From the IMG/VR virus record IMGVR_UViG_3300037840_000188, positions 62,001 through 126,000 of that record: a stretch of 64,000 nucleotides of DNA; one strand, written 5' to 3'. This DNA is from a virus. A program made the position numbers and the translations under genes. This document shows positions 23,645 through 61,213 of the stretch, in pieces; the stretch's first letter is position 1; every line of letters starts with the position of its first letter. The notes beneath the pieces were generated by a model. It worked only from the letters and a program-made list of their open reading frames with translations. It ran no database searches and was not told the origin of the DNA.

Positions 23645-24562
23645 TTAATCGTCAGACCAGTCGTCCACCGCCGCTGCCCAAGCCTCGCGATACGACTTTT
23701 GCTCGCCGCTCATCGTTGGAGCTAGGTGCTGCCAGTCTACATCGAGTCGCTCTGTGACAGGCTCGTCAGTTCGCTCTGGATTATCTGTCCAGCGATGACC
23801 AGCCCAGAATGCCAGGTTACAGGCCCGGAGGCGATCATCGTGGATTCCATAAGCACCACGAGCAGTCATTCTTTGCATGTCAACAACGGCATTAGCGTAC
23901 TCATCTACAGCCCACGGCGACATTAATTTCACCCTGCGAGACATCAGGTGCATGCGTGCCCTGGTCCACAGAATTCTCGTGCTCCTTGGCGTCGCCTGCC
24001 AGCCTATAACGTTCGTGTCTTCCGCGACGGTGTTGGCAAACTGCTGCCACATCCACATATTCCCGTACCCAAGTCGGATTAATTCCTGCGTCATTAGGGG
24101 ACCGGGGCCGGGGTATGACTCGTATATAAACTCGCACTGATCCCCTTCTTCTCCCGCGTACATGCGCCCCATGACATTGGCTACTTTTGCCAGCTCTGCA
24201 GCATCAACAGGAGCCGCGAACTCGGCCACCTGAAGATCCCGCATGACAAACGCTTGTGTGCCCGTAGCCTTGTCGATGACCGGCTTATTATTCTTGAATA
24301 GCGGCATCTTTATGGCATTCGGTCGGAAAATTTCGATCACGCCGTTATCGGTCTTATAGTCATCTTCGCGACGAGACCCTCGGCTCCAGTTCGTAATCCC
24401 CTCGGACGGGTCCGCCGCCATTATGTATTTGGCCCAATGTTTTGGCTCTTCCCAGACGAGCAGTAATCCCCTGGGGTCACCATTGACAGACTCGTCGGCT
24501 TCGCCAGTTCGCAAGAAGGAACTTCCAGATACGTGGAAGGCGGATTGGAATTCGTCGTTCAC
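23645..24562 (-). CDS. terL: terminase large subunit, nuclease part
   Basis: 305 residues holding the RNase H-like headful nuclease: YIMAADPSEGI (first Asp), CEFIYESYPG and the late GIHDDRLRACNLAFWAG (Asp pair). It is in frame with the ATPase part and separated from it by a single TAG codon at 24569-24571 (…SVN, TAG, DIVNDEF…). It could start separately at GTG 24562, but the family normally has one chain. Confidence 0.85.
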   Translation of the reverse strand: MNDEFQSAFHVSGSSFLRTGEADESVNGDPRGLLLVWEEPKHWAKYIMAADPSEGITNWSRGSRREDDYKTDNGVIEIFRPNAIKMPLFKNNKPVIDKATGTQAFVMRDLQVAEFAAPVDAAELAKVANVMGRMYAGEEGDQCEFIYESYPGPGPLMTQELIRLGYGNMWMWQQFANTVAEDTNVIGWQATPRSTRILWTRARMHLMSRRVKLMSPWAVDEYANAVVDMQRMTARGAYGIHDDRLRACNLAFWAGHRWTDNPERTDEPVTERLDVDWQHLAPTMSGEQKSYREAWAAAVDDWSDD

Positions 24563-24568
24563 AATATC

Positions 24569-25810
24569 CTAGTTTACCGACAACTCATACTCATAACAGG
24601 CCCCTGGATTCATGCACTCGTTAGTTAGCTGCTCGATAAGCTCTGGCGACAAGGCCCCTTTATGTGGCGATTGAAAGGTCTCTCCGGGATCAGCCCCAAA
24701 ATTGGTCAGAAACTCTGGCAACTCTCCGTTACTTACATGCTCTGCCCGCGTGGACTCCCACCAATAAAGCTGCTCGCGAGTCGGTCGATATGTAATGCCA
24801 TCATTGAACTCCGGCGAAGTGCGCTCGATCTTCTCGGCGTGCTTACGTGTATGCTCTTCCGGAACCCAATCATCTGGCGCAATGGCTCGATATTTGGTTT
24901 TGTTATACCACCACGGAACGAAGCAATAAATCCAGTCCTCGTAACCTCGACGGTGCCACCTCGCTCCCTCCGAAGACTCATGCCAATAATTCCCCTTACC
25001 GTCAGACGTAGATTCCTGCACGTGGAGGGTCGTGATGGCTTTTGGAATCGAAGGAACGAAGCTGAACCTTATTTTTCCAGGCTGCTTGAATAACGCGACC
25101 TCAGTGAGGTGCGAAATATCGTTCTGCGTACCCGTGCCAAAGCCAGTTTCCGAATTCTCCGCCTGATAGCTGATACGACTTGATATCGGATCTTCAAATC
25201 CCAGTTCCGCATTCTGTTTGTCAGGATAAATGTTAGGCTTTAACCACCAGGCGAGCTTATCGAGAAAGAGATGATCACGAGCAAAAACTTCCGAAATGCG
25301 CTGATCGTCGAGAGTCGCGAACAGGCCGCGCACTGGATACCAGAAAAGCATCCGATGCCACATCATGCCGCGCACTGTCGCTGTTGCGGCGACCTGGCGA
25401 ACCTTGTGGATGTACGCCTTAATGCCTGTCGTGAACTTATACTTGCGCTGCTCTTCGTGGCACTCTACCTCGCGCTTGCCAAAAAGTTTGATATATCGAT
25501 GCTGAGATTCAAGCAGCATTGGCGGTCCGATACCGCTGCCACGCCCGACGCCGGGGTCGATTTCCAGATTGAAATATCTCGAAAAAAAATACTCGAAGTC
25601 TACCTTGCATAACAGGCGCTCACTATCCAGAAATTCTTCTTCCTCGCGGTTTAGTGGCCTGATTAATTGCCCCTGCGGTAGGAGCTTTCTTGTTTTCGGA
25701 TCGCGAATCAGCGTCTCTAGGTGCGTAGAAAATTCAATCGAACGGTCGCGGCTCTGGCGCTGGAATTTGAGACCAGCCTTTTTGGCCTTGTGTAAACGCT
25801 GGGCGATTAT
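24569..25810 (-). CDS. terL: terminase large subunit, ATPase part, start codon not found
   Basis: Packaging motor ATPase. The frame from ATG 25519 gives 316 residues with FGTGTQNDISHLTEVALF (Walker B/acidic motif) and a degenerate Walker A-like region. Clear TerL-like coding continues upstream (SRDRSIEFSTHLETLIRDP, VDFEYFFSRYFN) as far as about 25810, open to 25891, without ATG, GTG or TTG. The upstream 69-residue gene ends in AGGAAATAA; a -1 slip there would fuse it to this frame. An in-frame TAG separates the nuclease part. Damaged or recoded. Confidence 0.8.
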   Translation of the reverse strand: MIAQRLHKAKKAGLKFQRQSRDRSIEFSTHLETLIRDPKTRKLLPQGQLIRPLNREEEEFLDSERLLCKVDFEYFFSRYFNLEIDPGVGRGSGIGPPMLLESQHRYIKLFGKREVECHEEQRKYKFTTGIKAYIHKVRQVAATATVRGMMWHRMLFWYPVRGLFATLDDQRISEVFARDHLFLDKLAWWLKPNIYPDKQNAELGFEDPISSRISYQAENSETGFGTGTQNDISHLTEVALFKQPGKIRFSFVPSIPKAITTLHVQESTSDGKGNYWHESSEGARWHRRGYEDWIYCFVPWWYNKTKYRAIAPDDWVPEEHTRKHAEKIERTSPEFNDGITYRPTREQLYWWESTRAEHVSNGELPEFLTNFGADPGETFQSPHKGALSPELIEQLTNECMNPGACYEYELSVN

Positions 25811-29950: not shown

Positions 29951-30934
29951 ATGGAAGCCGCCGCACCCGAACCAAAGACATTTCTGGAAGCCGTTCAGTA
30001 CTTCGCTAACATCGACAATTGCATCGCATACCTTGCTAACAAGCGTTGGTCGAACGGCATCGTAGAGTGTCCGACGTGTGGCCGTAAGGATGCGGCCTAC
30101 GTGCCGTCTCGTCGTTACTGGCAGTGCAAGACGCGGCACCCTAAGGCGCAGTTCTCGGTTAAGGTCGGGACGATCTTTGAGGACTCTCCTATCGGTCTCG
30201 ACAAGTGGCTTCCCGTCATGTGGCAGGTTGCCAGTTGCAAGAATGGCGTCTCGTCCTGGGAAATCAGCCGGAACCTCGGAGTAACCCAGAAGACCGCGTG
30301 GTTCATGCTCCATCGCATCCGGCTTGCAATGCAGGACGACTTCACGGGCGGAAAGCTTGGTGGCGAAGTGGAAGTCGACGAGACTTTCATCGGCGGTAAG
30401 GCACGGAACATGCACAAGGACCGCAAGTGGCGTGCGCTTGAAGGGGCTGGTGGTGGCCAAGTCGGAAAGACCGCCGTTATCGGGCTGCTCGAACGTGGCG
30501 GCAAGGTTCGCACTCAAGTCATCCCGAACCGGAAGCGGCCCACGATTCAGGCCGAAGTACGGAAGCACGTTGAGCCGGGATCGCCGCTGTACACGGATCA
30601 GCTTGAGTCCTATCGCGGCCTGAATGAGTTTGAGCATCAGGTGATCGATCACGCCGTGGCATACGTCAATGGGCAGGTTCATACCAACGGGCTCGAAAAC
30701 TTCTGGTCCTTGCTCAAGCGCGGATTGGGCGGCACCTATGTTTCCGTCGAACCGTTCCATCTGTTTCGGTACGTTGACGAACAGGCGTTCCGCTACAACA
30801 CGCGCAAGGACGCGGACGGCGAAGTGATCCCCGATGCAGAGCGTTTCGGCGAACTGTGTCGAAAGGTCGTGGGTAAGCGGCTGACGTATGCCGAACTCAC
30901 CGGCAAGGTGGGACAAAAACCGGAAGACTTCTAG
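29951..30934 (+). CDS. IS1595-family transposase (T2)
   Basis: 327 residues, intact. Zinc ribbon CPTCGRKDAAYVPSRRYWQC (about 40-60), helix-turn-helix around EISRNLGVTQKTAWFMLHR, catalytic domain with VEVDETFIGGK (Asp), LYTDQLESY (Asp) and HTNGLENFW (third catalytic motif). Same sub-family as the T1 fragment. Moves T2 by cut and paste. Confidence 0.93.
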   Translation: MEAAAPEPKTFLEAVQYFANIDNCIAYLANKRWSNGIVECPTCGRKDAAYVPSRRYWQCKTRHPKAQFSVKVGTIFEDSPIGLDKWLPVMWQVASCKNGVSSWEISRNLGVTQKTAWFMLHRIRLAMQDDFTGGKLGGEVEVDETFIGGKARNMHKDRKWRALEGAGGGQVGKTAVIGLLERGGKVRTQVIPNRKRPTIQAEVRKHVEPGSPLYTDQLESYRGLNEFEHQVIDHAVAYVNGQVHTNGLENFWSLLKRGLGGTYVSVEPFHLFRYVDEQAFRYNTRKDADGEVIPDAERFGELCRKVVGKRLTYAELTGKVGQKPEDF

Positions 30935-42180: not shown

Positions 42181-45165
42181 GTGTCCCCACTCCAGCCCGA
42201 CCTCGATACAATTCGCCGCTCCGTCGCTCTATTCCTTAAACCAGGCTCAGTAGCCGAACTGCGCGCCCCGAAATCCAGTCAGGGCGTCATTTCCGGTTAC
42301 TTTTCTGATCCCGAGGCTCTCGTCAAAGCGGCGGCCTCAGTTAGTGGGCGAGCGCCGGGCGTTTACGCCACGATCAACAAGGTCCATCCAGACGCGCTTA
42401 AAAAGAATACTCCAAACCAGGCGCGTGCCAACGCTATCGAGACCACAGCCGACCGCGAGATCACGCACCGCTGCTGGCTCCTTTTTGACTTCGATCCGAA
42501 CCGTGCCACCGGAACTTCATCCACAGACGCCGAACACGATGAGGCTCTGAAGGTAGCCGCCGAGGTCGGAAACGCCATTATCGGTGAAGGGTGGCCCGAG
42601 CCGATTTATGCGGACTCTGGAAATGGCGGACATCTTCTCTACCCGCTCGATCTTCCAAACACAGACTATACCCGCGATCTCATAAAAGCCGTCCTTAAAG
42701 CACTGGCGAAGCGCTACGAGACCACCTCGATCACCATCGATAAAACGGTATTTAACGCTTCGCGCATTTCGAAGATATACGGCACTGCGGCATGCAAGGG
42801 GCAGCATACCGAAGAGCGCCCACACCGCCTCAGCTCGCTGATCCACGTACCGTCCGATCTTAAACCAGTTACACAGGATCTTCTCGAAGCCCTTGCAGCG
42901 GAAGTGAAGCCTGAGCCCGCGCCTCCCGCGCCGGAAAGATACTCAAACGCGCCATCGAATTTCCGTCTCGAAGATTTCATGTCCCGTTACGGGATCAGAG
43001 TACATCGCGGGCCGATTCCTTATGACGGCGGAGAAAAATGGCAGCTGAAGAACTGTCCTTTCAATCCAGAGCACAAAGCTCCGGATTCGATGATTTTCCG
43101 CGCACCATCGGGACGTCTTGGATTCCGGTGCCTCCATAATTCCTGCGCGGATTACAACTGGACCAGCCTGCGCGATCTTTTCGAACCAGAGCGGCCAAAG
43201 GCCAAAGTCACGTCAATCACGAATGGCCATGCCGCTGATCACCCGCCCGCCGAGCCAGAACCAGAAGAAGATCCGGACAGTCATCTCCTCGCGTTATGCG
43301 ATGAGATCATCGCCTCAAAGCAGTCTCACCGGATATACGAGAAGAGCCTATTCGACCTGATCGGAAAAGCAGACAAGTACGTCGGTATCCAAGTCCGTTC
43401 CATGCTCCGAAAAGAGTTCGGGACCGATATGGTGATGACTGGCACTGGATCATGGCCCGAGCTTTATCGGGACGCGATTAAAACCGCCCCATGGCGAAAG
43501 AGAACTCCGGAACTGGAAGACAATCCATCCCCCGGCTCACTACTTCCGGTTCAGATAACCGACCGCCAGCTCCGTGATATATCGCTCGATGCGATCCGTC
43601 AGGTGAAAGCCAAGAACGACCCACCCAGCCTGTTTGTCCGCTCGGGCGCGCTGGTCCACGTCATTCAGGACGAGAAGGAACGCCCCAGCGTCTCCGTAGT
43701 TACCGAATCCCGGCTGCGAGGAGTCCTCGCCCGCGTCGCCAATTTCATGAAGACCGACCGAAACGGCGAGCAGAGAAACGCGTTCCCGCCGGTCGAGGTT
43801 GTGAAGGACATCATGGCCTTCAATCCCCAATCCTGGCCGTTCCCGCGCCTGATCAGCGTGGCTGAAGTGCCGACCCTCCGTCCGGACGGGACTATCCTCG
43901 ACCAGCCCGGATACGACGAGGACTCGGCTATTTTCTACGCCCCCGCCAGCACCCTGAAGCCTTTCCCGCTCCCGGAGTCTCCCACTTTCGACGATGTAGA
44001 GAGCGCGAAGTGCCTGGTAGAGGAGGCTATCGGAGAATTTCCTTATGCGGACCTAGCCAGCCACGCCAATACCTACGGCTTGCTTCTCACGCCAATCCTG
44101 CGCCCGGCATTCAGCGGCTGCGCCCCCCTCGCCGTGGTAGACGCGCCTCAGGCCGGAACCGGTAAGTCTCTCCTGATCGACGTCCTCTCGATCATCACCA
44201 CCGGACGCCCGGCGGCTATGATGCCATACCCATACAAGGAAGAAGAGATGCAGAAACAGATTGGCGCGTCGCTCTCCGCTGGACGCCAACTCATCGTCTT
44301 CGACAACCTGGAAGGTGAACTCCGGAGCCCGGCTCTCGCGCTCGCAATCACCGCCAAAGAATTCGAGGCCAGAATCCTCGGCGTCAGCCAAAACATGACG
44401 GTCGAGAATTCATCGACGTGGGTAGTAACAGGAAACAATATCCGGCCCGCTGGCGATATGCCCCGACGGTGCTATCAGATCCGGCTGAATGCACAGAGAT
44501 CAAAGCCGTACATGGACCGCCAGTTCAAGCACCCCAGACTGCTTAATTGGGTGACTGAAAATCGGTCACAGATCCTCCACGCTCTACTCGTTATCGCCAG
44601 AGCGTGGTTCGCTGATGGCCGAAAAGAAACGGTCCAAAAGACGCTCGGTAGTTTCGAGGAATGGCATCAGATTGTGGGTAGTGTAATTGAACATGCCAAG
44701 ATGCCAGAATTTTTGAAGAACTACTCCGACTTCATAGACCAGGAAGACGAGAGTCCTAGACAGTGGGAGGAGTTTCTTTTACAGATATTTACAATTTGGG
44801 GCGCTGCGAATGCCGAGAAAACTAATGAATTTACTATCGCCGACTTGATTATAGCGATCAATACCGATAAGACGGAACTTCGCACCGTCCTTCCAGCGGA
44901 GGTCGCTGACTGCCTCGAAAAGAAAATCAGTCACCGGATCGTGATCGGCAAGATGTTCCGCACCCGCCGACAACGCCACTTTGGCATCGGTGCACGTGAG
45001 TGCTGGCTTGACCGAGCCGACGACGGTACAGAGCACAAAGGCTCGGCTAAGTGGGTGGTCTGCCGATCCCTGAAGGGTGCTCAAGCTACGGTTGAAACTA
45101 ATCCCCAGATCGAGAGCAAGCCGCCCGACGAAGACCTAGAAGACCGGATGACGCTCTGGTCATAA
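42181..45165 (+). CDS. primase-helicase replication protein
   Basis: 994 residues, GTG start. Residues about 1-250: archaeo-eukaryotic primase-like domain (CWLLFDFDPNR, YADSGNGGHLLYPLDL, ITIDKTVFNASRISKIYGTA). About 265-340: CHC2-like zinc region (NCPFNPEHKAPDSMIF, FRCLHNSC). About 600-850: helicase with Walker A DAPQAGTGKS, Walker B-like LIVFDNLEG and a sensor WVVTGNNIRP. Combines primer synthesis and DNA unwinding in one chain, as in phage and plasmid replication. The candidate origin follows immediately. Confidence 0.88.
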   Translation: MSPLQPDLDTIRRSVALFLKPGSVAELRAPKSSQGVISGYFSDPEALVKAAASVSGRAPGVYATINKVHPDALKKNTPNQARANAIETTADREITHRCWLLFDFDPNRATGTSSTDAEHDEALKVAAEVGNAIIGEGWPEPIYADSGNGGHLLYPLDLPNTDYTRDLIKAVLKALAKRYETTSITIDKTVFNASRISKIYGTAACKGQHTEERPHRLSSLIHVPSDLKPVTQDLLEALAAEVKPEPAPPAPERYSNAPSNFRLEDFMSRYGIRVHRGPIPYDGGEKWQLKNCPFNPEHKAPDSMIFRAPSGRLGFRCLHNSCADYNWTSLRDLFEPERPKAKVTSITNGHAADHPPAEPEPEEDPDSHLLALCDEIIASKQSHRIYEKSLFDLIGKADKYVGIQVRSMLRKEFGTDMVMTGTGSWPELYRDAIKTAPWRKRTPELEDNPSPGSLLPVQITDRQLRDISLDAIRQVKAKNDPPSLFVRSGALVHVIQDEKERPSVSVVTESRLRGVLARVANFMKTDRNGEQRNAFPPVEVVKDIMAFNPQSWPFPRLISVAEVPTLRPDGTILDQPGYDEDSAIFYAPASTLKPFPLPESPTFDDVESAKCLVEEAIGEFPYADLASHANTYGLLLTPILRPAFSGCAPLAVVDAPQAGTGKSLLIDVLSIITTGRPAAMMPYPYKEEEMQKQIGASLSAGRQLIVFDNLEGELRSPALALAITAKEFEARILGVSQNMTVENSSTWVVTGNNIRPAGDMPRRCYQIRLNAQRSKPYMDRQFKHPRLLNWVTENRSQILHALLVIARAWFADGRKETVQKTLGSFEEWHQIVGSVIEHAKMPEFLKNYSDFIDQEDESPRQWEEFLLQIFTIWGAANAEKTNEFTIADLIIAINTDKTELRTVLPAEVADCLEKKISHRIVIGKMFRTRRQRHFGIGARECWLDRADDGTEHKGSAKWVVCRSLKGAQATVETNPQIESKPPDEDLEDRMTLWS

Positions 45166-46051
45166 TCGAGCCCAACTTTAGGTTCATTCCGAGAATAAAA
45201 ACAAAAACACTCCCCATTGTTTTTTTGTGTACTACAGATGAAGTTTTTACGATTTATTCGGGGAGTCGCGGAAACTACTTAGATCTCCCCAGCAATTCCC
45301 CATACACACTCCCCAAATTTATAAGTCTGTATATATGTTATATTTATACGGATACTACGTTTATAGTATGGGGAGTTGGGGAGTCATATGGACTTCGTAT
45401 ATGAGAACAAAATAAAATACACATTTCCGCATATAATCTTTATTGCTGCATGTGTTCTCACAGCGCCGGGCGGCTCTACAACTCCCCCGACTCCCCAACC
45501 CCCCAAAAAAAATCAGCGCCCGATGGAAGGCGTTTTCCGCTCACCCCGCTCACCTCCGCCACGCACATTCGAAACTGCTCCTGTTCGCTCGGCTCTCGGG
45601 GGCGACTCCGTGGCGCTGGCGATCCGCCAAGCTCCGTGAGGTCGCCCAACCGCCGGAAATTCGCTGTAGGCCTCCCTAGCACGAAAGGAGGCCATCCCAC
45701 GAACCACTCACACAGCTCCATGGAGCCTAGCTTTACGGCCTTCCTAATTTTTTTTTGATTTTTTTTGGAATTTTACGGTGGTTCCTGAAAAAACCGTTAT
45801 TGGGCCTGAGCGTTCAGCGACGCGTCCGCGCGTGGCGTCCGGACCCATCAAACAATGTGGAAGTCTATTTAAGTCAATACTTTGAATGTCTTACGTGCGG
45901 TCTCCGGATACCATGAAAGGACACATAACCGCTCGGTTACGTGTCAACACGAGACGGCATAAACACAGCTAACAACAACAAAACAAACAACATAATAGCG
46001 GGATAATGGGATAATGGCCGCCGGAGAGTGGCGGTAGTGCCGGAGACCGCG
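45166..46051. other. non-coding region downstream of the primase
   Basis: About 890 bp. The first 330 bp is AT-rich with repeated GGGGAGT motifs (see the repeat entry). The rest contains poly-T tracts at 45749-45770 and no gene I can support; an open frame at 45376-45639 is of low-complexity Pro/Arg type and is probably spurious. Confidence 0.5.
45209..45497. repeat. iteron-like GGGGAGT/ACTCCCC repeats, candidate origin
   Basis: Seven copies of ACTCCCC or its complement at about 45209, 45260, 45308, 45370, 45378, 45481 and 45490, in both orientations, around an AT-rich core (45316-45368, including TATATATGTTATATTTATAC). Position directly after the primase-helicase gene fits an origin. Confidence 0.55.
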
Positions 46052-46258
46052 TTACAGGCCGCGTGTAGGGAGTCCGGCGCGCCGATAAAGAGCTGCCACG
46101 CGTTCACTTGCCGCATGTTCACGCGCTAAATCTGCCAATTCCCGACGTGTGCGCCCTAGGTAATCCCGAGGGTGCGCGCAAACAGAACACGCGGTTTTAC
46201 TCCGTCGATTGAAGTGTTTACATTGACTGCATCGCCAATCTGAAGCGCCAATCAGCAC
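46052..46258 (-). CDS. RanBP2-type zinc finger protein
   Basis: 68 residues: DWRCSQCKHFNRRSKTACSV followed by CAHPRDYLG matches W-x-C-xx-C-...-N-...-C-xx-C of RanBP2/NZF fingers, which bind single-stranded RNA or ubiquitin in eukaryotes and occur in some bacterial and phage proteins. Then a basic helix. The only minus-strand gene in the right half outside elements. Confidence 0.7.
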   Translation of the reverse strand: MLIGASDWRCSQCKHFNRRSKTACSVCAHPRDYLGRTRRELADLAREHAASERVAALYRRAGLPTRGL

Positions 46259-46432
46259 GTAGACAATCTTACCTAGTCAATGAATATTTATGCAATCAGA
46301 TGACGGATTTAAGCATAGATCAAGTATGGACTCATGTTTCCCGAGTGACCGCGCGGAATGAATAGATATTCATCGCGGTGAATATTTATACATATTCGCG
46401 GGAGACCACAAACAGCACGGCGAAGATAGGTA

Positions 46433-46461
46433 TTGACGCCAGCAGTGGTACATGCTAACTT
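46433..46461 (+). promoter_or_regulatory. repeated early promoter, copy 1
   Basis: TTGACG, 17-bp spacer ending GGTACATGC, TAACTT. The spacer end and -10 (GTACATGCTAA) are shared with the promoters at 47003 and 48661. Drives the 46481 gene. Confidence 0.75.
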
Positions 46462-46702: not shown

Positions 46703-47006
46703 CTTGGAACGCGATCCGTTCGGAAAATGCGAGTGTGGCTGTAACCGCGCGCAACATTCAGGCGGACTTGGAATGTGCAATGGCTTCAAATGCCGTTGTG
46801 GACGTTACAAAAAACAGACTCGCGAGTTTCTGCATATGCAAATGATGCGAGACGCGCTGAATGCGGCAATCGAAATGATTGAAGATTTACCCGGCGATGG
46901 ACGGACTATAAAGGTATGCTTGCCGAATTACCAGGAACGTAATGATATGGTTCGGCAAATGAAGGCCGCTATCTCGGGTCCGGTGACACTCGAAAAAAAG
47001 TCTTGA
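46692..47006 (+). CDS. Cys-rich early protein
   Basis: 104 residues from ATG 46692. N-terminal CECGCNRAQHSGGLGMCNGF then KCRCG is a compact Cys/His zinc cluster; helical C-terminal half. Overlaps the previous gene. The second repeated promoter overlaps its end. Confidence 0.65.
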   Translation: MANSLERDPFGKCECGCNRAQHSGGLGMCNGFKCRCGRYKKQTREFLHMQMMRDALNAAIEMIEDLPGDGRTIKVCLPNYQERNDMVRQMKAAISGPVTLEKKS

Positions 47007-47031
47007 CTTGGTGCATCGTACATGCTAAGCT
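47003..47031 (+). promoter_or_regulatory. repeated early promoter, copy 2
   Basis: TTGACT, 17-bp spacer with CGTACATGC at its end, TAAGCT. Identical -10 region to copy 3. It precedes the 618-nt structured leader, not a gene. Confidence 0.75.
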
Positions 47032-47649
47032 GGTTTCAGTTAAGGCGAGACACAAGCAAGCGGATAGAGTCACTCCAAGGATACTCACCGATAGCGCGGG
47101 AAACTGCAAGCTTTAACGAGACCACGGGTTACCACGGGACACGGGCAGGGGTTAAATGAGACCTGCCCGTATTACAGGTGCGCCATTCGTTTGCGGAATG
47201 CGGGTAAACTCCGATTCGTCAGCAAGCTTATACGCTCACTTGCGGGAGACACGGGAGACCAGCACGGCGAGACCTGACGCACGCGAGTGGCGACACTGGT
47301 AAGGGTCTCAAGAGTAGTAACCGCGAAACGCGTTCGAGTGGCGACACTGATATCGCGGAGACCACGGGTAGTCAGTTCATTGATATAGCGTCTCGGGACA
47401 AGCTTACGCTTGCTTCGGATGCAATCGGCCATGGGATACGCGGCCATGGCTATCGTCAGAGACACTGGCGATTCATAACCGGAAACATCAGGTTCGCAAA
47501 AACGTCCGGTTAACGTGCTGATAGACCGCGTGGCACGCGCGGGACTGTGACAGAGTCGGATAGGTGTCAACACACTACGGGAGACCGTAGACGAACATAT
47601 AGAGCCATGAGTGCTTACGCATTCGTGGCTCTTAGTGTTTGGAGATAAC
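47032..47649 (+). ncRNA. long structured non-coding leader RNA
   Basis: 618 nt between a strong promoter and ATG 47650 without a plausible plus-strand gene. Many local hairpins are visible: CGGGCAGG/CCTGCCCG (47140-47172), CTACGG-GAGA-CCGTAG (about 47575), GAGCCA...TGGCTC (47602-47631), CCATGG pairs near 47430-47450. Repeated words include GAGTGGCGACACTG (twice) and GAGACCACGGGT (twice). Size and ornate structure recall large phage RNAs such as ROOL or GOLLD, but I cannot match a family. Confidence 0.6.
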
Positions 47650-48342
47650 ATGTCAAAACTGATTAAAGACGGCGATAGCCTGGTTTCCGCTAAGACGTCA
47701 GGCGGATATGAAATCCATGTCTATGATGACGGATTCGGCCCATTGTGGATATCCCGAAACTCAATCGGGATTAACGGTATCGTTCGCGCGCGGTCATGGG
47801 AAGACGCGTACTCGATTTGTGAAGACGAGTTTTTTCCGGAAGCGGACGAGACCATAGAACAGCTGGTTAAAGAGTACGGATTTAAGCGGGAGAATGTCAA
47901 AATCATTCATCCTGCGCACCGTAAGACTTCCCCAGTGACGTACGCCAATGGCCACGTGGAAGAATTCGACATAGAAACATCCGTCCAACGTGATGCGACT
48001 ATGGCGGATTACCAGCTAACCGGCGGTAGTCTATTGCCTGGCCAGTTCGTACGCTGGGAAACGCGGGAAACTCCGGATGCGGACGCGTGGTCCGAGAATG
48101 AACTGTTTTGTGAGGCGTACGGATTCCGTCCAAATGGCCGCAATGAACGGGATACCATCGGCCATGGGATTTACTCGAAAGACTTGAACGGCGATAGCCT
48201 GGATAGGCTCACTCCGGAATTGCTGGCGGATATCGGTATTGAACTGGTGATTGAGGCTGAAGAGTCCGAAGAATCGGACCCGCGCGACGATCCTGCAAAT
48301 AACCCGGATGACGGCGGACGCGAGACACTGGCGGACGCGTAG
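47650..48342 (+). CDS. hypothetical 230-aa acidic protein
   Basis: GGAGAT ribosome site. Begins MSKLIKDGDSLVSAKTSGGY; alpha/beta first domain, second domain with GQFVRWETRETPDADAW, acidic disordered tail (EAEESEESDPRDD). No family recognised. Expressed from the long leader RNA if the transcript is continuous. Confidence 0.7.
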   Translation: MSKLIKDGDSLVSAKTSGGYEIHVYDDGFGPLWISRNSIGINGIVRARSWEDAYSICEDEFFPEADETIEQLVKEYGFKRENVKIIHPAHRKTSPVTYANGHVEEFDIETSVQRDATMADYQLTGGSLLPGQFVRWETRETPDADAWSENELFCEAYGFRPNGRNERDTIGHGIYSKDLNGDSLDRLTPELLADIGIELVIEAEESEESDPRDDPANNPDDGGRETLADA

Positions 48343-48660: not shown

Positions 48661-48689
48661 TTGACAGCGTACTTCGTACATGCTAAGCT
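48661..48689 (+). promoter_or_regulatory. repeated early promoter, copy 3
   Basis: TTGACA, 17-bp spacer ending CGTACATGC, TAAGCT. Eight nt before the ATG at 48697, leaving a very short leader. Best consensus of the three copies. Confidence 0.8.
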
Positions 48690-51609: not shown

Positions 51610-52744
51610 TCAACGACTATCGACCGAAAGTCGATAGCTTGTCCCGCCCGCTGAAAGCGGGCTGAAGACGTTCGGCGCGTTGACGTTGCGCCCTGCGGCG
51701 GTGATTTGCCGCAGCGTTGGTATCTGCATGGGCCTCGTGATGGCACGAGACGCAGCGGAACTTAGACTGGCTGGAGCGGTTGGATTTTGAGATATGACTG
51801 CAACGATTACATTCGCGGGACGAGTTTCGGGGATCGGTCACCTCGACCGGCACGCCCCCAATTCCAGCTTTGTAAGCCACGAACGATCTCAATTGCCTGA
51901 ACGCCCAACTTCGCAGAACTACCCGTTGCGACTTCCTAACCTTTACCCGGTCGAGAATACCGCCAAGTTCTTCGATGGCGATACCCCGACCAGTGCCTTT
52001 GGCTGTCGCAACGATCTGTTTGGATATGCAATGGTTAATGTCACGAGCAAAACGCGATTCTTTGCCCGCCAATTTACGAAGACGACGGCGTGCCGACTTC
52101 GTTTGAAGCTTCTGGAGTTTGGTTCTCAGTCGGCGCTGCCGATGCCGCACGGCTTTGACCGGCTTACCGCTGTAGTGCTTTCCGTCCGAGTCGCTGGCGA
52201 TATTAGTAATCCCGAAGTCGACGCCAAGGAAATCATCGGCGTCTCTCGGTTCGGGCTCCTCAACGTTACACGTGGCTGTCAGAAACCAGTTGCCGCGATG
52301 GAAGAGAAGATCAGATTCGCCCTGGCGGGATGCGAGCAGCGCCAGCTGCCTCTCTCCTGCGACAAAGTTGCATTTTATGCGCCCGTCGAGAGTGCTTATG
52401 GAAACTGTCTTCTTATCGACATGCCACGTCAGATTTCGGTCGTCGAATGCGAGGCTACCGAGCGGCTTAAATCGCCGCTTTGTTTTCTTGTCGAGCTTAT
52501 ATGCGTCCGCGACCTTCGCTGTGCATCGGACGGCCACTTGGGCTGGAATTCCGAAGGTCTCTCGCAGTTCTCGGTACGAGAGTTTCTGGAGCGCGTATTG
52601 GGCAAACGTCTTCTGTTTCCACGCTTGATCGCTCAGCCAATTGCAGGCTTTATTTGCCGTGCGCAGTAACTTATCGAGAGCCATCCGTTGCGCGGCGTCG
52701 GGGAGCAATTTAACTTTTGCGGAAAGCTTCAATGATCCAGTATA
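51610..52744 (-). mobile_element. IS200/IS605-group TnpB element 1
   Basis: About 1,135 bp with a single tnpB gene and no TnpA, so non-autonomous. On the minus strand the left flank ends TTGAT, the known target/TAM type of ISDra2-like elements, and the right end contains hairpins CAGCCCGC...GCGGGC and CTATCGAC-TTT-GGTCGATAG followed by TTGAC. The right end is expected to form the omega RNA whose guide would be copied from the flank at about 51590-51609. Confidence 0.75.
51617..52732 (-). CDS. tnpB: TnpB RNA-guided nuclease 1
   Basis: About 371 residues from TTG 52732. RuvC-like motifs: FLGVDFGITNIASD (Asp), GIAIEELGGIL (Glu) and HADTNAAANHR (Asp); zinc finger CNRCSHISKSNRSSQSKFRC with CVSC. 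N-terminal part typical (KLLPDAAQRMALDKLLRTAN). TnpB cleaves DNA using an RNA from the element's right end and helps element retention. Upstream open frame is outside the element. Confidence 0.9.
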   Translation of the reverse strand: MKLSAKVKLLPDAAQRMALDKLLRTANKACNWLSDQAWKQKTFAQYALQKLSYRELRETFGIPAQVAVRCTAKVADAYKLDKKTKRRFKPLGSLAFDDRNLTWHVDKKTVSISTLDGRIKCNFVAGERQLALLASRQGESDLLFHRGNWFLTATCNVEEPEPRDADDFLGVDFGITNIASDSDGKHYSGKPVKAVRHRQRRLRTKLQKLQTKSARRRLRKLAGKESRFARDINHCISKQIVATAKGTGRGIAIEELGGILDRVKVRKSQRVVLRSWAFRQLRSFVAYKAGIGGVPVEVTDPRNSSRECNRCSHISKSNRSSQSKFRCVSCHHEAHADTNAAANHRRRAQRQRAERLQPAFSGRDKLSTFGR

Positions 52745-52754
52745 ATCAAGTATT

Positions 52755-52874
52755 GATGAAAAAAGCAAATCTCGACGGAAACTGGCAGTCGATGGGCGAC
52801 GAGAAGTTGGATGCCGTAGCCGCTGCCTTGGGCTGGGAAGATCCCGCTGGCTGCACGTCTGAGGCGAAGCAATG
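52755..52874 (+). CDS. 39-aa peptide
   Basis: ATG 52755: MKKANLDGNWQSMGDEKLDA and 19 more. Overlaps the restored preceding gene (TGATG) and the next gene (ATGA). CsbD-like or stress peptide resemblance is weak. Confidence 0.6.
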
Positions 52875-52990
52875 AGCGACCGCCTGAAAGGCTGCATTGT
52901 CAGTTTCGACCACGATATCCGCGAAGACGACGCCGAGTTTTACCTAAACGCCATCCGTGCAATAAAAGGGAATTATATACATAATTTCCC

Positions 52991-53349: not shown

Positions 53350-54273
53350 ATGTCGAAATCCACCATCTCCACCTTCCAACTTTTCGCGCTGTTTCCCGAC
53401 GAGGAGACGGCGCGAAAATATCTGGAGGGCCGTCTGTGGCCCAACGGGCTGGTTTGCCCGCAGTGCGGTAATGCCGCGTTGCTGACGCGCCCAAACGGCT
53501 TCTTTCGCTGCAATCCGTGTGGGAAGTACACGTTTTCTGTGCGCGAAGGCACAATCTTCGGACGCTCGAAGATCCCACTGCACAAGTGGATTTACGCGAT
53601 GTATCTGCTGGTCACCGCCCGCAAGGGCATCAGCAGCCTGCAACTCGCAAAAGAGATCGGCGTCACCCAGAAATCCGCGTGGTTCATGCTTCAGCGCCTG
53701 CGGGAGGCGTGCGGAGACTCTGACGACATCGACAAACTGCGCGGCGATATTGAGATCGATGAATGCTTTGTGGGCGGGAAAGAGGCCAACAAGCACGAGC
53801 GGAAGAAGCTCCACGCGGGACGAGGCGCGGTCGGCAAAGTCGCAGTACTCGGAATGCGGGAGCGCGGCGGCAGGACGCGGGCGCAAGTCATCGACCAGCG
53901 CACCATCGAGACGATCCAGGGCGCGATTCACGCTGGCGTTGAGGTTGGATCGCAACTCTACACCGATGAGCACGTAGCGTATACGGATCTGGACGGCCTG
54001 TTCTTCCGTCACGAGACAGTCAACCACGGCGCGGGAGAATACGCGCGGGGCGAAGCTCACACGAACAGCATTGAGAGCGTCTGGGCGGTCCTGAAGCGCG
54101 GGCTGCATGGCGTCTACCACCACGCCAGTCCGAAGCATCTCAGCCGATACGTTGACGAGTTCACATTTCGGCTGAACGAGGGCAAGGTGTCCCGGCACAG
54201 TCTGGAGCGGCTCGCGTCGTTTGTTGATCGCGTGGCGGGTAAGCGGATCACCTATGCGGAGGTCATCGCATGA
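53350..54273 (+). CDS. IS1595-family transposase (T3)
   Basis: 307 residues, intact. Zinc ribbon CPQCGN...RCNPCGK, HTH region SSLQLAKEIGVTQKSAWFML, catalytic motifs IEIDECFVGGK, LYTDEHVAY, HTNSIESVWAVL. Terminal AEVIA overlaps the next small gene (ATGA). Confidence 0.93.
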   Translation: MSKSTISTFQLFALFPDEETARKYLEGRLWPNGLVCPQCGNAALLTRPNGFFRCNPCGKYTFSVREGTIFGRSKIPLHKWIYAMYLLVTARKGISSLQLAKEIGVTQKSAWFMLQRLREACGDSDDIDKLRGDIEIDECFVGGKEANKHERKKLHAGRGAVGKVAVLGMRERGGRTRAQVIDQRTIETIQGAIHAGVEVGSQLYTDEHVAYTDLDGLFFRHETVNHGAGEYARGEAHTNSIESVWAVLKRGLHGVYHHASPKHLSRYVDEFTFRLNEGKVSRHSLERLASFVDRVAGKRITYAEVIA

Positions 54274-56805: not shown

Positions 56806-57549
56806 ATGGATTTCAAGCCAATACGTTTTATCGCCACTGTATGGAATCACTGGGAGGCGCGCTTTGGCACGACGTTCGCCGTGCTTCTAGCGGTTATGCA
56901 GGCAGTAATAGTCGCAGTGGCAGATCCGGTGAAAGTTCCTGAATGGATCAAAACATTTCCACCTCTGCTATGGCTATCCATAGGAGCGGTGCTTTTATTT
57001 TGGTCATGCTATGCAGCATGGAGGGACGTTGATACTAAACTTGCAGTACTCAAAGCGACTAACTCGAAGCCTAGCTTTTCGGGAAAGATAAAACTACTCT
57101 CGTTTGCTTCTGGTGGACCGAATAACGAGTCGTCAATTGTAACGGCTGTACTATCTCTGAATAATCCAACTGGTCCACCGAGTATCACTGAGGACTGGAA
57201 AATATCAGTCATTATTGGAGGTGAGGAGATAGTGAGCAAGGCGATTCTTTCTCCAAAGGGCGATATTCGATTGGGGTTCGCGTCGGACCCGCAAAAGAAC
57301 ATTATTTTGGGTAATGACAACTGGCTACCACGAGCCGGGAAGATAACTCCGATACCTTCTGGCGGCGGAATAGACGGATGGCTGATGGGTCTAGTGCCAT
57401 GCCGCAGGGAGATTCTACAGAGGGCAGGTAATATGGTCCGGATTAGATTTAACGACGTTACCGGATATGAACACACAATTGATGAACCAATAACCGGTAT
57501 AACCAGTGACCCCCTAGGGATGGATGGGTTACAAAATAAAACCTCCTAG
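56806..57549 (+). CDS. T4 membrane passenger protein
   Basis: 247 residues. Two transmembrane helices (FAVLLAVMQAVIVAVAD; PLLWLSIGAVLLFWSCYAAW) and a C-terminal beta-rich soluble domain. Resembles the T1 passenger in plan. Converges with the transposase (4-bp overlap of ends). Function unknown; passenger genes of such transposons often affect host fitness or defence, which is speculation here. Confidence 0.7.
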   Translation: MDFKPIRFIATVWNHWEARFGTTFAVLLAVMQAVIVAVADPVKVPEWIKTFPPLLWLSIGAVLLFWSCYAAWRDVDTKLAVLKATNSKPSFSGKIKLLSFASGGPNNESSIVTAVLSLNNPTGPPSITEDWKISVIIGGEEIVSKAILSPKGDIRLGFASDPQKNIILGNDNWLPRAGKITPIPSGGGIDGWLMGLVPCRREILQRAGNMVRIRFNDVTGYEHTIDEPITGITSDPLGMDGLQNKTS

Positions 57550-58454
57550 GCGATGAGTTCCCTATACTCCATCTTCTCGGTCTGTACCAACCGCGTGAGC
57601 GTGTCACGGAACAGGAACGGATTCTCCCGGTTGTTGAAACGAAACTCAAACTCTTCAAGGTAACGATCCAAATGCTTCGCGCTCACCTGATGATAGGAAC
57701 CGACGATAGACCGTTTGAACAGCGACCATGCGCCCTCGATGCCGTTCGTGTGAACGTCTCCCCTGACCCATTCTTCCGCGCTGTGGTTCACGCTGTGGTG
57801 CTCGGTGTCTGCGTCCGCGATCCCCGAGTATCCGGGGTTGTCATCAGTGACAATGCGCGATGTATCCGGCTTCGTGGTTTCCGCTACGAAGGCGTGCAGG
57901 GCTTTCTTGTTGCCCCGCTTCTTTTGCTTCTCGACGCGCAGCCGAATCTGTCCGCCGCGTTCGAGCGCCCCGAGGACCATTGTTTTGTTGTCGAGGTTCC
58001 CGCTGCCTACGTGCCGCTTGTGTCCGCCTACATAGGTTTCGTCCATCTCAACCGTTTTACCGATCCCGCCGATCTTGGTAGGACTCACTTCGGTCATAGC
58101 CTTGCGGATGCGATGACAGAGGTACCAAGCGGTCTTATAGGCCACTTTGATCGACCGGCCCAACTGATTAGCAGAGATGCCTTTCTTTCCCTCGCACATC
58201 AGATACACAGCAAGAAACCACTTCCAGAGCGGAAGGTGAGTGTCATTGAAGATCGTACCGGCGGTTACGGAGAACTGGTAGCGGCATGAGTCACAGTCAT
58301 ACACTCCGCGTTCTGCGATGCGGGAGACCGTCGTCTTGCCCGGGCAACGCGGGCAACGCGCGCCAGTGGGCCAGCGCAGCAACTCCAGGTATTCACGGCA
58401 GGCATCATCATTACCGCCAAACTGTTCAACTAGAGCGACAAGGTTAGTTTCCAT
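57546..58454 (-). CDS. IS1595-family transposase (T4)
   Basis: 302 residues, intact. Zinc ribbon CPRCPGKT...YDCDSCRYQF, HTH part SANQLGRSIKVAYKTAWYLC, catalytic motifs VEMDETYVGGHKR, IVTDDNPGYS, HTNGIEGAW. Its start codon overlaps the start of the divergent small gene (58452-58455). Confidence 0.93.
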   Translation of the reverse strand: METNLVALVEQFGGNDDACREYLELLRWPTGARCPRCPGKTTVSRIAERGVYDCDSCRYQFSVTAGTIFNDTHLPLWKWFLAVYLMCEGKKGISANQLGRSIKVAYKTAWYLCHRIRKAMTEVSPTKIGGIGKTVEMDETYVGGHKRHVGSGNLDNKTMVLGALERGGQIRLRVEKQKKRGNKKALHAFVAETTKPDTSRIVTDDNPGYSGIADADTEHHSVNHSAEEWVRGDVHTNGIEGAWSLFKRSIVGSYHQVSAKHLDRYLEEFEFRFNNRENPFLFRDTLTRLVQTEKMEYRELIA

Positions 58455-59646: not shown

Positions 59647-60087
59647 CTGATCTCTCAGCAGCTCTGGAGCGGTGCTGTAAAGCGGCGGGGTGGACCTACA
59701 TCGAATACAACGGCTACCAGCACGTACTGGAGAAGCCAACAGGCACGACCACTAAAGCAACGTGGCACTTCGATGACTCGTCTCACGACGACGCCATAGC
59801 CCTTCAGTCCGCTCTGGTGAAGCGGTATCCACAGATGTGGCCTTCGTTCGTTTCCCAAGTAAGGGCACAAGCTCTGAGTGTTGTTGGGTGGGAACTGTTG
59901 GCGGTTCATCTGTTGACCCTTGCCCCCTCCGCCCGTATTCTGGCGCTTGAAGCTGCGTTGCCGAGATGTGGGGAGTGCGGGGGCAGCGGTGAAAAACCGA
60001 CGGAGCGCAGCATCAGGCTATGCCTTGAAACCGGCTCGCCGATGGAAACTGGTATGTGCCCCGCCTGCGACGGTGTGGGGATAGAGA

Positions 60088-61213
60088 CGTGCTGAGAACG
60101 TATCAATTCAGGCTGCTTCCGAACGCCACCCAAACAGCGATACTTGAGCGCGTTCTTGCGGATAACTGTGAAACCTACAATGCTGCCCTTCAGGAGCGCA
60201 GGGATGCATGGCGACTATGCCGCGAGGGTATAACCTACCAGGATCAACAAAGGGAATTGACCGAGTTACGGAAAGACCCAAGTTTCAGTTGGATAGCCTG
60301 CAAAATTCAACGAGATGCCCTGCATCGAGTAGATCGTGCATTCAAGGCATTCTTCCGTCGATGCAAGGATGGGGAGAAGCCCGGATTTCCGAGATTTCGA
60401 TCCATCTACAGGTACAGGTCGTTCACAATTGAAAGCAAACCAAGCATCAAGCATCGGTCGATTCTTATCCCCAAGATAGGGTACATCCGGATGCGAGGAG
60501 GAAGGCCGGTAGCGGGGATCGTAAAAACAGCGACGATCAAAAAAGACGGAAGCATCTGGAATGCGAATATCGTGTGTGATATCGGGGCATCGCCGACCCG
60601 ACAACCGGTGTCACATCCGGTCGGAATTGACGTAGGCCTGACAAATCTCGCCGTTCTTAGCGATGGGACAAAAATCGACAACCCGCGCTGGACCAGGAAG
60701 CACGAAGCGAGGATCGCCGCCGCAAGCCGACGATTGGCCGTTAAACAGAAGCGATCAAAAAATCGTATCCGCGCACGAGAAGTTTTGCGTCGTGCCCACC
60801 AGCGAGCAGCAGATGCGCGTAAGAATTACCTGCATCATGTCTCTAAGTGGCTCATATTAAATTACGATCTGATCGCCCACGAAGACCTGAAGATCCGAAA
60901 CATGGTAAAGTCCCCGCGACTTGCCAAATCAATCATGGACGCCGCCTGGGGTATTCTCATCTGGCAACTGACGTACAAAGCTGAAAAGGCTGGGCGTTGG
61001 ATTGTTCCGGTGAATCCGCGCGGGACATCGATCCGTTGCTCTGGCTGTGGCGAGGCGGTCCCGAAGACACTGGCAGACCGTCAGCATACTTGCGTCTGTG
61101 GTGTGAGCCTCGGACGCGATCACAACGCAGCAATTAACATTCAAAGGCTCGGGATGAGCCTTGCGGGCTTTGGGCCTTCAGAACGTGAGGTCAACTCATG
61201 AGTTCCATAGAGA
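60088..61213 (+). mobile_element. TnpB element 2
   Basis: About 1,126 bp with only tnpB. Flanked by the 7-bp direct repeat ATAGAGA (60081-60087, 61207-61213). The right end after the gene contains GAACGTGAGGTCAACTCATG, the kind of sequence from which an omega RNA guide end is made. No transposase, so it must be mobilised in trans or be immobile. Confidence 0.75.
60089..61201 (+). CDS. tnpB: TnpB RNA-guided nuclease 2
   Basis: 370 residues from GTG 60089. Motifs: LLPNATQTAILERVLADNCE, VGIDVGLTNLAVLSDG (Asp), LIAHEDLKIRNM (Glu), zinc finger CSGCGEAVPKTLADRQHTC plus CVCG, and GRDHNAAINIQRLG (Asp). Differs clearly from TnpB 1 in sequence and zinc spacing. Intact catalytic set. Confidence 0.92.
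   Translation: MLRTYQFRLLPNATQTAILERVLADNCETYNAALQERRDAWRLCREGITYQDQQRELTELRKDPSFSWIACKIQRDALHRVDRAFKAFFRRCKDGEKPGFPRFRSIYRYRSFTIESKPSIKHRSILIPKIGYIRMRGGRPVAGIVKTATIKKDGSIWNANIVCDIGASPTRQPVSHPVGIDVGLTNLAVLSDGTKIDNPRWTRKHEARIAAASRRLAVKQKRSKNRIRAREVLRRAHQRAADARKNYLHHVSKWLILNYDLIAHEDLKIRNMVKSPRLAKSIMDAAWGILIWQLTYKAEKAGRWIVPVNPRGTSIRCSGCGEAVPKTLADRQHTCVCGVSLGRDHNAAINIQRLGMSLAGFGPSEREVNS

What the first reader, a model, noticed from the sequence alone, without database searches (positions are those of the whole stretch)
47003..47649. Promoter-driven 618-nt structured RNA without a gene
A strong promoter is followed by 618 nt rich in hairpins, GNRA-like loops and repeated words (GAGTGGCGACACTG twice, GAGACCACGGGT twice), with no plus-strand gene. 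It resembles in size the ornate large phage RNAs (ROOL, GOLLD classes) but I see no match.
Basis: partly seen in the sequence, partly recalled or inferred. Interest (0 to 1): 0.7.

Follow-up and report, generated by a model that had tools for sequence, protein, structure and literature searches.

The report
Orphan structured RNA in large phage
A bacterial virus from an environmental sample carries, just behind its own promoter, about 600 letters that look like a tightly folded RNA rather than a gene, but no relative of it could be found, so its shape is predicted and its job is unknown.

Summary
Window 47003-47649 lies in a 141-kb phage record (probable Acidobacteriota host). A promoter, one of three near-identical copies within 2.3 kb and found nowhere else in the record, is followed by 604 nt without a plausible gene. 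These fold far better than shuffled sequence (z -6.6; -4.7 without the 3' hairpin; antisense -2.3). They hold four GNRA-capped hairpins with stems of at least 4 bp (0.4 expected) and are strongly enriched in repeated words on one strand (GAGAC 9 times, 1.3 expected). I read it as a real structured phage RNA of three multi-helix domains. The ROOL/GOLLD comparison is analogy only: no Rfam family matches even at E up to 10 beyond chance-level miRNA/pseudoknot scores, and no homologue was found by blastn, exact patterns or single-sequence covariance models, so covariation cannot be tested. The 3' end is uncertain: the long 3' hairpin has a poor U-tract and stands beside the Shine-Dalgarno of a conserved phage gene, for which no other promoter was found. 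A free RNA (favoured) and a processed or structured 5' leader are both open. The minus-strand ORF found no relatives. Function is inferred, not shown.

The parts
47003..47031 (+). Promoter TTGACT-N17-TAAGCT, extended -10; predicted start of transcription about 47038
   Evidence: Sequence; 3 exact copies in the record, all within 2.3 kb on +, none elsewhere with up to 2 mismatches
47038..47641 (+). Predicted 604-nt structured noncoding RNA
   Evidence: Fold z -6.62, antisense -3.37; no Rfam match; no homologue found
47039..47117 (+). 5' domain, closed by GUUAAGGC/GCUUUAAC (47039-47046 with 47110-47117), holds the GCGG-GAAA-CUGC hairpin 47096-47107
   Evidence: Base-pair probabilities 0.99-1.00 for these helices
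47127..47322 (+). Middle domain: long-range helices 47127-47140/47305-47322, 9-bp hairpin 47141-47170, 10-bp helix 47181-47190/47283-47292
   Evidence: Probabilities 0.86-0.98; z -4.04 for 47125-47324
47338..47573 (+). 3' domain: multi-branch junction with four hairpins (47388-47422, 47427-47451, 47452-47472, 47476-47512) closed by 47362-47376/47517-47533
   Evidence: Probabilities mostly above 0.9, some pairs 0.6-0.9; z -4.15 for 47336-47575
47575..47590 (+). Hairpin CUACGG-GAGA-CCGUAG with GNRA loop
   Evidence: Probability 0.99
47592..47641 (+). 3' hairpin: 7 bp, 2x2 loop, 14 bp; possible terminator with poor U-tract, or possible RNase III site
   Evidence: Listed as terminator-like; -32.6 kcal/mol for 47589-47645
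47285..47298 (+). Repeat GAGTGGCGACACTG, copy 1 (can form AGUG-GCGA-CACU)
47336..47349 (+). Repeat GAGTGGCGACACTG, copy 2
47118..47129 (+). Repeat GAGACCACGGGT, copy 1; one of 6 plus-strand GAGACC in the RNA
47358..47369 (+). Repeat GAGACCACGGGT, copy 2
46433..46461 (+). Sister promoter in front of gene 46481
48661..48689 (+). Sister promoter in front of gene 48697
47650..48342 (+). Downstream gene: 230-aa conserved phage protein of unknown function, no own promoter found
   Evidence: 12 relatives in viral contigs; no Pfam; promoter scan

Best explanation
A phage-encoded structured noncoding RNA of about 604 nt. Steps and their status: (1) it is transcribed from its own promoter, one of a set of three that this phage places only in this small-gene region (sequence shown; activity inferred); (2) it folds into three multi-helix domains joined in a chain plus a GAGA-capped hairpin (predicted from one sequence, statistically strong, no covariation); (3) it is released at the 3' hairpin by termination or by RNase III-type cleavage, leaving the downstream mRNA with its Shine-Dalgarno (inferred); (4) it works in trans as a multi-site scaffold or decoy, in which the repeated GARA/GCGA tetraloops and GGGARAC/GAGAC words are the repeated docking sites for a protein or for other helices of the same or neighbouring RNA molecules, probably early in infection (inferred).
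For: Fold z -6.62 on the + strand, -4.71 without the 3' hairpin, clearly better than antisense and than 32 controls. The first helix starts one base after the predicted start site. GNRA hairpins 4 against 0.42 expected; GAGAC 9, GAGACC 6, CACGGG 5 on the + strand against 1.3, 0.18 and 0.45 expected, and 2, 1 and 0 on the other strand. Dedicated promoter family. No plus-strand ORF above 48 aa; no relatives of the minus ORF. The gene downstream has no similar DNA upstream in 12 other phages, so the element is not tied to that gene.
Against: No homologue at all, so no covariation and no sign of conservation. The 3' hairpin is followed by TAGTGTTTG, a poor terminator tail, and gene 47650 seems to depend on the same promoter. 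The 200-nt window 47200-47399 alone does not fold better than chance (z +0.8). No transcript data. The trans role rests on motif repetition only.
Confidence: 0.5

Rival explanations
1. Long structured 5' leader: the transcript from 47003 runs into gene 47650-48342, and the 600-nt fold plus the hairpin next to the Shine-Dalgarno controls termination, stability or translation of that gene.
For: No sigma-70-like + promoter found between 47031 and 47650; the hairpin ends at 47641, next to GGAG; weak U-tract; the start codon region is paired in the joint fold.
Against: Pairing of RNA and gene start gains -10.3 kcal/mol against -7.4 +/- 2.6 for shuffled starts, 11 of 60 shuffles as good, and among 11 other gene starts of the phage one reaches -20.2 and one -10.9, so no specific masking. 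The 12 relatives of the gene lack a similar leader.
Confidence: 0.3
2. DNA-level element: the one-strand word repeats are binding sites (iterons, regulator or recombination sites) and the fold is a by-product.
For: GAGACC and CGGGARAC also cluster just outside the RNA (46043, 46399/46402, 47848, 48064).
Against: No tandem array was found. The fold stays exceptional and strand-asymmetric. A separate ACTCCCC cluster at 45209-45496 is the better origin candidate.
Confidence: 0.1
3. Unrecognised or decayed gene: the start-less + frame (47209-47514) or the 159-aa minus ORF (47172-47651) is or was coding.
For: Both frames are fairly long for chance; a 14-nt word (ATCGGCCATGGGAT) is shared in the same frame with gene 47650. 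Codon statistics miss at least one small gene here (46052-46258 scores -11.2 although L014 encodes a similar protein by eye), so they cannot exclude this.
Against: No relatives of the minus ORF; HMM of the downstream protein family against six frames, best E 0.13; codon scores -8.5 and -4.3; no Shine-Dalgarno before the minus ORF by eye; the GAGACC copies fall in different frames.
Confidence: 0.07

Closest known systems
ROOL RNA
   Same: Phage-borne, similar size (659 nt in the solved example, PMC12286853), elaborate multi-helix fold, no protein gene
   Different: No Rfam match; not beside the tRNA cluster; no covariation, multimer or pseudoknot evidence; rich in short repeated words
GOLLD RNA
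   Same: Large structured phage RNA in a genome with many tRNA genes
   Different: No Rfam match; shorter (604 against often over 800 nt); tRNA cluster about 47 kb away
OLE RNA
   Same: About 600-nt ornate RNA
   Different: OLE is a bacterial RNA mostly of Bacillota (abstract of PMC12054373 in a search listing); no Rfam match here
CsrB/RsmZ-type sponge RNAs (recalled)
   Same: One-strand repetition of a short motif partly shown in hairpin loops
   Different: Repeated word is GGGARAC/GAGACC, not the recalled ANGGA of CsrA; no Rfam match; longer

Membership tests
ROOL | Match to the family covariance model | tested here: not met
   Rfam 15 scan of the window at gathering scores and of 46950-47750 at E up to 10 gave no ROOL
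ROOL | Often near phage tRNA islands (PMC12286853) | tested here: not met
   22 tRNAs at record 52.7-61.9 kb, RNA at 109.0 kb; this is a tendency, not a strict rule
ROOL | Homo-octameric nanocage with kissing loops and A-minor contacts | not testable with these tools
   Needs cryo-EM or mass photometry
GOLLD | Match to the family covariance model | tested here: not met
GOLLD | Universally conserved 3' region with covariation | not testable with these tools
   No homologue found
Conserved cis-regulatory leader of the 47650 gene family | Similar structured element upstream of the gene in relatives | tested here: not met
   12 of 12 relatives show no blastn similarity upstream of the gene; most have ORFs there
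Self-splicing group I or II intron | Match to intron covariance models | tested here: not met
Intrinsically terminated independent RNA | G+C-rich hairpin followed by a U-run | tested here: inconclusive
   14-bp stem, but tail TAGTGTTTG

The most novel reading that the evidence does not exclude
A new class of ornate phage RNA, unrelated to ROOL, GOLLD and OLE, that assembles through repeated GNRA-type contacts into an RNA-only or RNA-protein particle during early infection of an acidobacterium.
Probability: 0.15. Interest if true: 0.85.

Novelty: new variant of a known kind. Interest (0 to 1): 0.45.

Why it matters
Only a few large structured phage RNAs are described, and their functions are poorly understood; two of them form RNA nanocages (PMC12286853). 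A further, unrelated candidate with its own promoter set, in a phage of a little-studied host phylum, would give an independent case for asking whether large RNAs are a common phage tool. The claim stays modest until homologues or a transcript are seen.

Tried and rejected
Homologue hunts that gave nothing: blastn of 46960-47660 against phages and plasmids; blastn of 47031-47645 against 14 related viral records (6 of 14 with chance pieces at E 0.03-0.5), 6 genomes behind named loci (4 of 6 with pieces at E 0.19-0.92) and 396 genomes of the putative host phylum (8 of 396 at E up to 0.01, about 4 expected, pieces of 26-38 nt, at most two candidates per genome scored). Exact patterns in viral contigs: double GTGGCGACAC (5 hits; read, four look like protein repeats and one, L020, is an unrelated array), promoter (3 short contigs; no R1/R2 match and at best chance-level blastn pieces), CTACGGGAGACCGTAG (2 hits; flanks unrelated). 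Single-sequence covariance models R1 and R2 (built from one sequence given twice): only the window itself in 15 records and 27 sources (R2 also gave a weak antisense match at E 0.62), 0 of 299 genomes each (the tool notes that an empty answer shows nothing without a genome known to match). Gene context: relatives of the primase (one, 51%, L014) and of the downstream gene (12) do not carry the RNA. Structure of the downstream protein: pLDDT 71, pTM 0.46, best PDB match E 0.08; no function inferred. CsrA sponge: considered, the ANGGA motif (recalled) is nearly absent by eye. Cis masking of the start codon: not better than chance.

Full report
Where it is. The window is positions 62001-126000 of a 140,995-bp virus record. 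Phage genes are a major head protein, a portal and a DNA methyltransferase by PHROGs, and a 994-aa primase/helicase-like protein. The portal's only relatives among 50,697 phage records are two Tunturiibacter (Acidobacteriota) phages, and an IS1595-like transposase in the window is closest to acidobacterial copies, so an acidobacterial host is likely, not shown. A 5-kb contig in IMG/VR has a 91% identical portal, but no near relative of the genes or ORFs around the RNA was found (the best are 61% and 51% identical proteins).

Promoter. TTGAC-N11-TACATGCTAA occurs at 46433, 47003 and 48661, all on +, in front of a gene, the RNA and a gene respectively. The search of the whole record with up to 2 mismatches gave these 3 forward and 0 reverse sites, 0 in the reversed control, and 0 sites in the 11 other phage records searched in the same call (one control hit in G013). 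The match to the E. coli -10 is modest (TAAGCT), so the strength is open; that three copies share 15 fixed bases is not chance.

Noncoding. Plus-strand ORFs inside are at most 48 aa. The minus-strand ORF of 159 aa has no relatives in viral contigs or phages, no Pfam or PHROG match and, by eye, no Shine-Dalgarno. Codon scores for the region are low, but the same test also rejects the small ORF 46052-46258, which resembles a protein in L014 by eye, so I give it little weight.

Fold. MFE of 47038-47641 is -239.7 kcal/mol against -196.0 +/- 6.6 for 150 shuffles (z -6.62); without the 3' hairpin z is -4.71; antisense -3.37 and -2.31. Thirty-two stretches of 554 nt (16 places, both strands) gave -3.40 to +1.41, the lowest at 45000, which overlaps a noncoding repeat region; ten further neighbouring stretches gave -2.91 to +0.14. 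An independent run on 47037-47640 with 20 shuffles gave z -6.17. Not every part is exceptional: 47200-47399 alone has z +0.8. High-probability helices define a 5' domain whose first helix starts at 47039, one base after the predicted start site, a middle domain, a branched 3' domain, a GAGA hairpin and the 3' hairpin.

Words. The RNA has 9 GAGAC, 6 GAGACC and 5 CACGGG on + (1.3, 0.18 and 0.45 expected; 2, 1 and 0 on -) and 4 GNRA hairpins with stems of at least 4 bp (0.42 expected). CGGGARAC occurs 10 times on + in the window, 6 of them between 46000 and 48500. Words of the RNA recur in the downstream gene at 48062, 48157 and 48322 and near 46400: more than chance by rough count, not explained.

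Relatives. None were found by any route (see Tried and rejected). The 12 relatives of the downstream protein have unrelated upstream regions, most of them with ORFs. Rfam gives only a tRNA in the whole window at gathering scores and three weak matches with E 0.31-7.7 in the region, none of a large phage RNA.

How it may work. I favour a free structured RNA acting in trans (0.5) over a structured leader of gene 47650 (0.3). The leader is favoured by position: no other promoter was found, the U-tract is weak, and the Shine-Dalgarno lies next to the hairpin. It is disfavoured by the absence of the element in relatives and by the lack of specific pairing to the gene start. Both readings share the statement that this is a transcribed, folded RNA, for which I would give about 0.8. 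A mixed reading, in which an RNase III-type cut at the 21-bp hairpin releases both an RNA and an mRNA, fits all the data and is untested.

Literature. I read the abstract, found passages and section 8 of PMC12286853 on ROOL, GOLLD and OLE; other papers were seen only as search listings. Those searches listed no report that I recognised as describing this RNA; I did not look further.

Noticed in passing
45209-45496; L014 18153-18411: Seven ACTCCCC/GGGGAGT words cluster in 290 bp behind the primase gene; five cluster in a noncoding stretch about 5 kb behind the related primase of L014. Possible replication origin with iterons.
   Followed up: partly
L076 10678-19947 (record 52.7-61.9 kb): 22 tRNA genes in the phage, just outside the window.
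   Followed up: no
L020 4635-4806: Six copies of AGTGGCGACACT, the same GNRA-capped palindrome as the repeat in the RNA, about 31-33 bp apart directly upstream of an ORF in another viral contig (counted by eye).
   Followed up: no
47650-48342: Conserved 230-aa phage protein family (ICEDEFFPEADE, HGIYAKDLNG) with 12 relatives in viral contigs, no Pfam match and none in 50,697 phage records.
   Followed up: partly
29951-30934, 53350-54273, 57546-58454, 51617-52897, 60056-61201; L076 17261-18256: Several IS1595-like transposases (named by eye; 53350 was the query) and two TnpB-like proteins (51617 by Pfam; 60056 by eye) in one phage record: an unusual load of insertion sequences.
   Followed up: no
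23645-25519: Two adjacent minus-strand ORFs that look to me like halves of a large terminase (recalled likeness; no PHROG match).
   Followed up: no
47417-47437 and 48150-48170: 21-nt stretch of the RNA (14 nt exact, ATCGGCCATGGGAT) recurs in the same sense in the downstream gene; with two further shared words of 11-12 nt this looks more than chance and is unexplained.
   Followed up: partly
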